Shown one piece after another: positions 40,578 to 62,835 of a stretch of 64,000 nt of DNA (its first letter is position 1; each line of letters opens with the position of its first letter). The notes under the pieces are model-generated. The model searched no databases. It worked only from the letters and a program-made list of their open reading frames with translations, and was not told the origin of the DNA. Location: contig JAINUG010000072.1 of NCBI GenBank assembly GCA_029706075.1, positions 3,643,799-3,707,798 of the forward strand, given 5' to 3'. The translations under genes were made by a program, and so were the position numbers. The DNA comes from Aldrovandia affinis (lineage: Eukaryota > Chordata > Actinopteri > Notacanthiformes > Halosauridae).

Positions 40578-62835
<22,258 letters not shown>

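What the first reader, a model, noticed from the sequence alone, without database searches (positions are those of the whole stretch)
59911..59940. In-frame 30-nt microexon in the FH2 linker of DAAM2
[10 protein letters not shown] has perfect splice signals, is phase 0 on both sides, and has TGC-rich sequence before its acceptor, a hallmark of SRRM4-dependent neuronal microexons. It lengthens the linker that sets how FH2 dimers step on actin, so it could tune elongation in neurons. A ten-residue insert at the same position in DAAM1 implies an origin before the DAAM1/DAAM2 duplication.
Basis: partly seen in the sequence, partly recalled or inferred. Interest (0 to 1): 0.7.

Follow-up and report, generated by a model that had tools for sequence, protein, structure and literature searches.

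The report
Linker microexon shared by DAAM paralogues
A fish actin-assembly gene (DAAM2) carries a tiny 30-letter exon that would lengthen a hinge in its actin-binding domain by ten residues, and two sister genes in the same genome have a tiny exon of the same length at the same place with the same probable control signal, so it looks like an inherited relative of a switch already known in DAAM1 of mouse neurons.

Summary
Window 59940-59911 (minus strand) is a 30-nt, phase-0 exon ([10 protein letters not shown]) between the lasso and knob exons of a DAAM2 FH2 domain. It is the only in-frame unit of its kind found in its 1,802-nt interval, and 0 of 1,000 shuffles gave one as strong. Human DAAM1 FH2 sequences in the PDB carry ten residues, DFFVNSNSKQ, at exactly this point with no gap. 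The window's genome has two DAAM1 copies. Each has one 30-nt phase-0 candidate in the same intron (DFFTVNNNKQ, DFLMTNNNKQ), the same gtgagt donor and the same TGCCTGC heptamer within 14 nt of the acceptor. Length, phase, donor and heptamer are shared while the residues differ, so the exon most likely predates the DAAM1/DAAM2 split. The DAAM1 exon is already known as a neural microexon (passage; reference titles). This is therefore a new member of a known kind. Neuronal inclusion and SRRM3/4 dependence are inferred; no transcripts could be read. A published passage says linker swaps change dwell time at filament ends, not gating, so processivity is the likelier target. Rivals: constitutive inclusion, or QKI/MBNL control.

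The parts
59911..59940 (-). 30-nt microexon, phase 0/0, [10 protein letters not shown]
   Evidence: only unit of its kind in the interval and 0 of 1,000 shuffles; same position as ten residues of human DAAM1 and as 30-nt candidates in L022 and L023
61038..61145 (-). upstream FH2 exon (lasso; NKITGT...FSAYQRQQ), donor gtacag
   Evidence: aligned to human DAAM1
59129..59235 (-). downstream FH2 exon (rest of linker and start of knob; [21 protein letters not shown]...), donor gtgcgt
   Evidence: aligned to human DAAM1
59945..59951 (-). TGCCTGC heptamer at -11 to -5 of the acceptor, candidate SRRM3/4 (eMIC) element; both DAAM1 copies have it at -14 to -8
   Evidence: in the last 30 nt of 0 of 13 other placed DAAM2 acceptors and 0 of 10 others in L022/L023
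59960..59962 (-). further TGC at -22; at -22 and -21 in the two DAAM1 copies
59941..59942 (-). acceptor AG; nearest upstream AG lies 62 nt before the exon
59905..59910 (-). donor gtgagt, strongest of the nine donors scored; gtgagt also in both DAAM1 copies
59926..59931 (-). ACTAAC inside the exon (QKI-type word), the only ACTAAY in the 1,942 exonic nt examined; not in the DAAM1 microexons
40581..62835 (-). the exons found of the DAAM2 gene (coiled-coil end, FH1, FH2, DAD); the 5' part lies beyond the window

Best explanation
The 30 nt are a real cassette exon of DAAM2, descended from the same ancestral exon as the known DAAM1 neural microexon. Inclusion adds ten residues to the flexible linker that ties the FH2 lasso to the knob; skipping joins ...AYQRQQ to KESGS... 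in frame. The likely control is the SRRM3/4 (eMIC) code: UGC words just inside the acceptor (TGCCTGC) let neural SRRM3/4 rescue an exon too short for exon definition, so inclusion would be highest in neurons. The added length gives the two FH2 halves more slack, and the most likely effect is on how long the dimer stays on a growing filament end. Shown: exon anatomy, and shared position, length, phase and cis word across three paralogues. Inferred: splicing pattern, regulator, biochemical effect.
For: Exon anatomy and uniqueness. Ten residues at the same point in the human DAAM1 PDB sequences 2z6e and 2j1d, aligned without a gap. One 30-nt, phase-0, gtgagt-donor candidate in the matching intron of each of two DAAM1 loci of the same genome. 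TGCCTGC near the acceptor in 3 of 3 microexons, in 0 of 10 other placed acceptors of L022/L023 and in 0 of 13 other placed DAAM2 acceptors. Over both strands of the window TGCCTGC lies in the last 16 nt of 6 of 8,343 AGs, 2 of the 6 being at this exon. Between the two DAAM1 copies, the 80 nt before the microexon give the best alignment score of six acceptor flanks (41.5; next 13.5). UGC near the 3' splice site and long AG-free zones are published marks of eMIC targets (PMC8797185 passage; PMC10250204 passage). Mouse Daam1 primers listed in a microexon study encode PEDLERTF and AQNCNIL, in the two flanking exons (PMC8378409 table; the passages seen do not give the Daam1 result). A neural-specific Daam1 microexon whose deletion harms memory is reported (PMC10912129 passage citing Polinski et al.).
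Against: No RNA was seen, so the exon could be constitutive in DAAM2. Its acceptor is of middling strength (7th weakest of 14), whereas eMIC targets have weak 3' splice sites. The only CTRAY branch-point word in the last 200 nt lies at -86, while the DAAM1 copies have CTAAC/CTAAT near -44 (by eye). The AG-free zone (62 nt) is not unusual in this gene (others 8-136). The heptamer sits 3 nt nearer the exon in DAAM2 than in DAAM1 and MAFFT did not put them in register. As a whole the last 30 nt of the DAAM2 microexon intron are only modestly closer to the DAAM1 ones (scores 7.5 and 6.5) than the best of seven other DAAM2 acceptors (3.5 and 4.5). At 30 nt it exceeds the strict 27-nt limit. DAAM2 is described in podocyte, osteoclast and oligodendrocyte settings (passages), though a motor-neuron-like line expresses it too. 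From recall, the human DAAM2 reference protein holds nine residues here (ELITNPSQQ), so the included form may be the usual one.
Confidence: 0.6

Rival explanations
1. The exon is real and homologous to the DAAM1 microexon but is constitutive or nearly so in DAAM2; only DAAM1 kept the switch. DAAM2 would then always have the long linker.
For: Strongest donor of the nine scored and a mid-strength acceptor; from recall, the human DAAM2 reference protein includes nine residues at this point; the held library has no paper with both DAAM2 and microexon.
Against: The UGC words near the acceptor are present in all three paralogues, which a constitutive exon would not need; very short exons pose problems for exon definition (PMC8378409 passages).
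Confidence: 0.28
2. A switched cassette exon, but controlled mainly by glial or muscle factors (QKI or MBNL) and not by SRRM3/4.
For: Perfect ACTAAC inside the exon, the only ACTAAY in the 1,942 exonic nt examined; mouse Daam2 has QKI-dependent splicing events, one between exons 15 and 16 (PMC11406248) and one cassette event in QKI-deficient oligodendrocytes (PMC5548867); YGCY words lie at -22 and -11 before the acceptor.
Against: The passages seen do not say that these events concern this exon; the exon 15/16 event holds a stop codon, which this exon does not; ACTAAC is absent from both DAAM1 microexons, and given a Thr-Asn pair about one in four would read ACT-AAY by codon choice.
Confidence: 0.09
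3. Chance: a decoy with good splice sites that is never used.
For: No transcript was seen; the residues differ from those of DAAM1 (3 of 10 identical, by eye).
Against: 0 of 1,000 shuffles; matching 30-nt candidates at the same place in both DAAM1 copies; human DAAM1 protein holds ten residues there.
Confidence: 0.03

Closest known systems
Neural microexon of DAAM1 (Polinski et al. 2025, Nat Commun 16:4210; paper not held, title and reference seen, one-sentence description)
   Same: Same position in the FH2 linker, ten residues, phase 0 on both sides, gtgagt donor and TGCCTGC near the acceptor in the DAAM1 copies of this genome
   Different: Other paralogue; residues differ ([10 protein letters not shown] against DFFVNSNSKQ in human DAAM1); no expression data for DAAM2; one ACTAAC inside the exon that the fish DAAM1 exons lack
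SRRM3/4 (eMIC)-dependent neuronal microexons
   Same: Short in-frame exon, UGC words next to the acceptor; strong donor (that mammalian targets have one is recalled)
   Different: 30 nt, so above the strict 27-nt cut; acceptor not clearly weak; no clear branch-point word near the exon; dependence not tested
FMNL3 FH2 linker (4eah)
   Same: Same lasso-linker-knob layout (family knowledge)
   Different: Over the matched span FMNL3 is 8 residues or 10 residues shorter by alignment end points, close to the DAAM form without the microexon; the alignment itself was not displayed

Membership tests
Microexon | length 3-27 nt (strict) or up to 51 nt (broad) | tested here: inconclusive
   30 nt: inside the broad limit (51 nt, abstract of PMC12064062), outside the strict one (27 nt, abstracts of PMC7935315, and PMC8378409)
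Microexon | length divisible by three, frame kept with and without | tested here: met
   both forms open through the FH2 exons joined
SRRM3/4 (eMIC)-dependent microexon | UGC motif close to the 3' splice site | tested here: met
   TGC at -22, -11, -7; at least 2 TGC in the last 12 nt in 9 of 1,340 other intronic AGs; 3 TGC in the last 30 nt in this one of 14 placed DAAM2 acceptors and in the two microexons of 12 placed DAAM1 acceptors
SRRM3/4 (eMIC)-dependent microexon | long AG exclusion zone | tested here: inconclusive
   62 nt here, 65 and 108 nt in the DAAM1 copies; the 13 other scored acceptors of the gene range 8-136 nt
SRRM3/4 (eMIC)-dependent microexon | weak 3' splice site | tested here: inconclusive
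   score 4.53, 7th weakest of 14, with recalled weights
SRRM3/4 (eMIC)-dependent microexon | strong branch point | tested here: inconclusive
   crude word scan: in the last 200 nt CTRAY only at -86; the DAAM1 copies have CTAAC/CTAAT near -44 (by eye)
SRRM3/4 (eMIC)-dependent microexon | neural inclusion, lost without SRRM3/4 | not testable with these tools
   no RNA data at hand
DAAM2 (DAAM-type formin) | FH1-FH2-DAD formin closest to DAAM | tested here: met
   E 2.1e-80 to DAAM1 against 7.4e-18 for the best DIAPH1 among PDB sequences; C-terminal part found with a recalled DAAM1 probe
DAAM2 (DAAM-type formin) | DAAM2 and not DAAM1 | tested here: met
   75% to human DAAM1, while L022 and L023 have 88% each; 80% to a human DAAM2 segment typed from recall; MoaA- and MoaC-like exons (MOCS1) convergent next door, as recalled for human DAAM2
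DAAM1 linker microexon lineage | same intron, phase and length in paralogues | tested here: met
   L022:2892-2921 and L023:1955-1984; human DAAM1 residues

The most novel reading that the evidence does not exclude
A linker-length switch in FH2, driven by the SRRM3/4 code, is an ancestral property of vertebrate DAAM formins and older than the DAAM1/DAAM2 split. Selection has kept ten residues, phase 0 and the TGCCTGC control word while letting the residues drift, so the exon works as a spacer that sets FH2 dwell time. DAAM2 may have added a second, QKI-dependent control through the ACUAAC inside the exon, so that neurons and glia set linker length by different rules.
Probability: 0.3. Interest if true: 0.55.

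Novelty: new member of a known kind. Interest (0 to 1): 0.38.

Why it matters
The DAAM1 microexon is tied to memory and spine number in mice (passage). A homologous exon in DAAM2 with the same control word would mean that loss of the DAAM1 microexon may be partly compensated, and that the exon has lasted since before the vertebrate DAAM duplication. Shared length with differing residues gives a clear test of whether linker length or linker sequence matters in formins.

Tried and rejected
Literature: the two key papers (PMC12056172 and PMC12993246) are not held, so whether they discuss DAAM2 is unknown. DAAM2 with microexon: 0 papers in the held library. DAAM2 with SRRM4: 3 papers, whose listed titles do not concern this exon; not opened. 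Of the 15 papers listed, two were opened for passages (PMC11406248; PMC5548867). (DAAM1, microexon, DAAM2, paralog, any three): 8 papers; none of the 8 holds both microexon and DAAM2 by the counts listed. Papers seen only as passages around search words: PMC8378409, PMC10912129, PMC8533766, PMC6056239, PMC8797185, PMC10250204, PMC5047451, PMC3302767, PMC11406248, PMC5548867; only in reference lists for DAAM: PMC12626424, PMC12626420, PMC10987577; PMC13281805 has no DAAM word. No paper was read whole.

A processed retrocopy that would show the spliced form was looked for in the own-genome protein search: of 21 matches, 15 lie exon by exon in the three DAAM loci and 6 elsewhere have 23-30% identity. 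That search scores only the best candidates, so the absence is weak.

A survey of the same linker intron in other formin families of this genome was wanted, but the machine did not answer. The acceptor of one DAAM2 exon (F) was not placed, so 14 of 15 acceptors were scored; donors were scored for nine exons only. Tandem repeats in 59200-61200: none.

Odds moved slightly (0.62 to 0.60) after adding the branch-point and flank-similarity results.

Full report
What is there. On the minus strand the window holds the 3' part of a DAAM formin gene; the exons found run from 62835 to 40581. In its FH2 region, exon 61145-61038 ends ...FSAYQRQQ in phase 0, exon 59235-59129 starts KESGSMDD... in phase 0, and between them lies cctgcgcag|GAGCTGCTCACTAACCAATCCTTCAAGCAG|gtgagt, which reads [10 protein letters not shown]. 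The upstream intron is 1,097 nt and the downstream one 675 nt.

Is it more than chance. With simple splice-site weights (recalled human-like frequencies) the exon's donor is the best of nine donors scored and its acceptor is 7th weakest of 14 acceptors scored. In the 1,802-nt interval it is the only stop-free AG-(9 to 51 nt, multiple of three)-GT unit at three settings of the thresholds, and 0 of 1,000 dinucleotide shuffles gave a unit at the strict setting. The acceptor has TGC at -22, -11 and -7. At least two TGC in the last 12 nt occur in 9 of 1,340 other intronic AGs of the gene's stretch (true acceptors left out) and in 38 of 8,341 AGs over both strands of the window.

Which gene. The joined FH2 exons match human DAAM1 in the PDB at E 2.1e-80 and the best DIAPH1 at 7.4e-18. 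The own genome (1.22 Gb, 2,576 contigs) shows three DAAM loci: the window, C1767 and C1224. Next to the gene, on the plus strand and convergent, lie MoaA-like pieces (about 9.2-22.2 kb; none reaches the whole-protein cut-off alone) and a MoaC-like stretch (about 27.0-27.5 kb, above the cut-off of two MoaC models), that is MOCS1, the neighbour of human DAAM2 as I recall it. So the window gene is DAAM2 and the others are two DAAM1 copies; two DAAM1 copies suggest a teleost.

The paralogues. Human DAAM1 in 2z6e and 2j1d has DFFVNSNSKQ exactly where the window has [10 protein letters not shown], aligned without a gap; 3 of 10 residues agree by eye, against 122 of 163 over the whole stretch. In the matching intron of each fish DAAM1 copy a lax scan (acceptor 0, donor 3, 9-60 nt) finds one candidate only, of 30 nt and phase 0: L022:2892-2921, DFFTVNNNKQ, and L023:1955-1984, DFLMTNNNKQ, both with donor gtgagtga. 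All three acceptors carry TGCCTGC, at -11 to -5 in DAAM2 and -14 to -8 in DAAM1, and a further TGC at -22 or -21. TGCCTGC is in the last 30 nt of 0 of 10 other placed acceptors in L022 and L023 and of 0 of 13 other placed DAAM2 acceptors. Over both strands of the window it lies in the last 16 nt of 6 of 8,343 AGs, two of them at this exon. Between the two DAAM1 copies the 80 nt before the microexon have the best alignment score of six acceptor flanks: 41.5 (63 of 78 aligned bases equal) against at most 13.5; the flank of exon B has about the same fraction of equal bases (55 of 67) but with more gaps. DAAM2 and DAAM1 microexons agree in 16 and 15 of 30 nt, the two DAAM1 copies in 25 of 30. So position, length, phase, donor and the control word are shared while the residues are not. 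Origin before the DAAM1/DAAM2 split is the simplest reading; independent gain is not excluded without outgroups.

What is known. The DAAM1 exon is in print as a highly conserved neuronal microexon (reference title); [quoted passage not shown] The full paper is not held. From recall, its abstract says the exon extends the FH2 linker. A study of PRPF40A and microexons lists mouse Daam1 primers that encode PEDLERTF and AQNCNIL, which sit in the two exons flanking this point (PMC8378409); the passages I saw do not give the Daam1 result. No paper in the held library has both DAAM2 and microexon. From recall, the human DAAM2 reference protein has ELITNPSQQ here, nine residues; this comes from no call.

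How it most likely works. UGC words next to the acceptor, long AG-free zones, weak acceptors and strong branch points are published marks of SRRM3/4 (eMIC) targets (passages of PMC8797185 and PMC10250204). The first mark is met. The AG-free zone (62 nt) is not distinctive in this gene (13 others 8-136), the acceptor is not clearly weak, and the only CTRAY word in the last 200 nt is at -86. SRRM3/4-driven neural inclusion is therefore the favoured but untested control. In the protein, the exon lies in the flexible linker between lasso and knob. A passage of PMC6056239 says that swapping linkers among three formins changed their lifetime on growing ends but did not alter gating (citing Paul and Pollard 2009a). 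I therefore expect a change in processivity more than in elongation rate. Over the matched span FMNL3 is 8 or 10 residues shorter by alignment end points, near the length of the skipped form.

Results against. No transcript was read. DAAM2 may include the exon always. DAAM2 is discussed in podocytes, osteoclasts and oligodendrocytes (passages), though also expressed in a motor-neuron-like line. The DAAM2 heptamer is 3 nt out of register with the DAAM1 one in the MAFFT alignment, and the last 30 nt of the DAAM2 microexon intron score 7.5 and 6.5 against the two DAAM1 flanks, where the best of seven other DAAM2 acceptors score 3.5 and 4.5: the shared word stands out, the rest of the flank hardly does. 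The exon holds ACTAAC, the only ACTAAY in 1,942 exonic nt examined, and mouse Daam2 has QKI-dependent splicing (PMC11406248; PMC5548867), though the passages do not show it is this exon, and one event carries a stop codon, which this exon does not. Two of the three TGC words in the last 30 nt are also MBNL-type YGCY words.

Verdict. It is a new member of a known kind; the neuronal and elongation claims remain to be tested.

Noticed in passing
window 59931-59926 (-): ACTAAC, a QKI-type word, inside the DAAM2 microexon; absent from the two fish DAAM1 microexons.
   Followed up: partly
L022:2812-2921 and L023:1875-1984: The intron end before the DAAM1 microexon aligns well between the two DAAM1 copies (63 of 78 bases) and holds a branch-point-like CTAAC/CTAAT and TGCTGCAT; DAAM2 shares little beyond the TGC words next to the acceptor.
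   Followed up: partly
window about 9055-27474 (+): MOCS1-like gene: MoaA-type pieces and a MoaC-type stretch, convergent with DAAM2. By eye, the MoaA cysteine motif seems split by an intron between two of these pieces.
   Followed up: partly
window 60870-60700 (-) and 55480-55150 (-): Two stretches that look by eye like tRNA-derived SINEs, one in the intron just before the microexon, one before a later FH2 exon; not identified by any search.
   Followed up: no
window 59235-59129 against L022:3617-3714 and L023:3173-3270: The next exon is three residues shorter in both fish DAAM1 copies than in DAAM2 (98 against 107 nt), so linker length may vary outside the microexon too.
   Followed up: no
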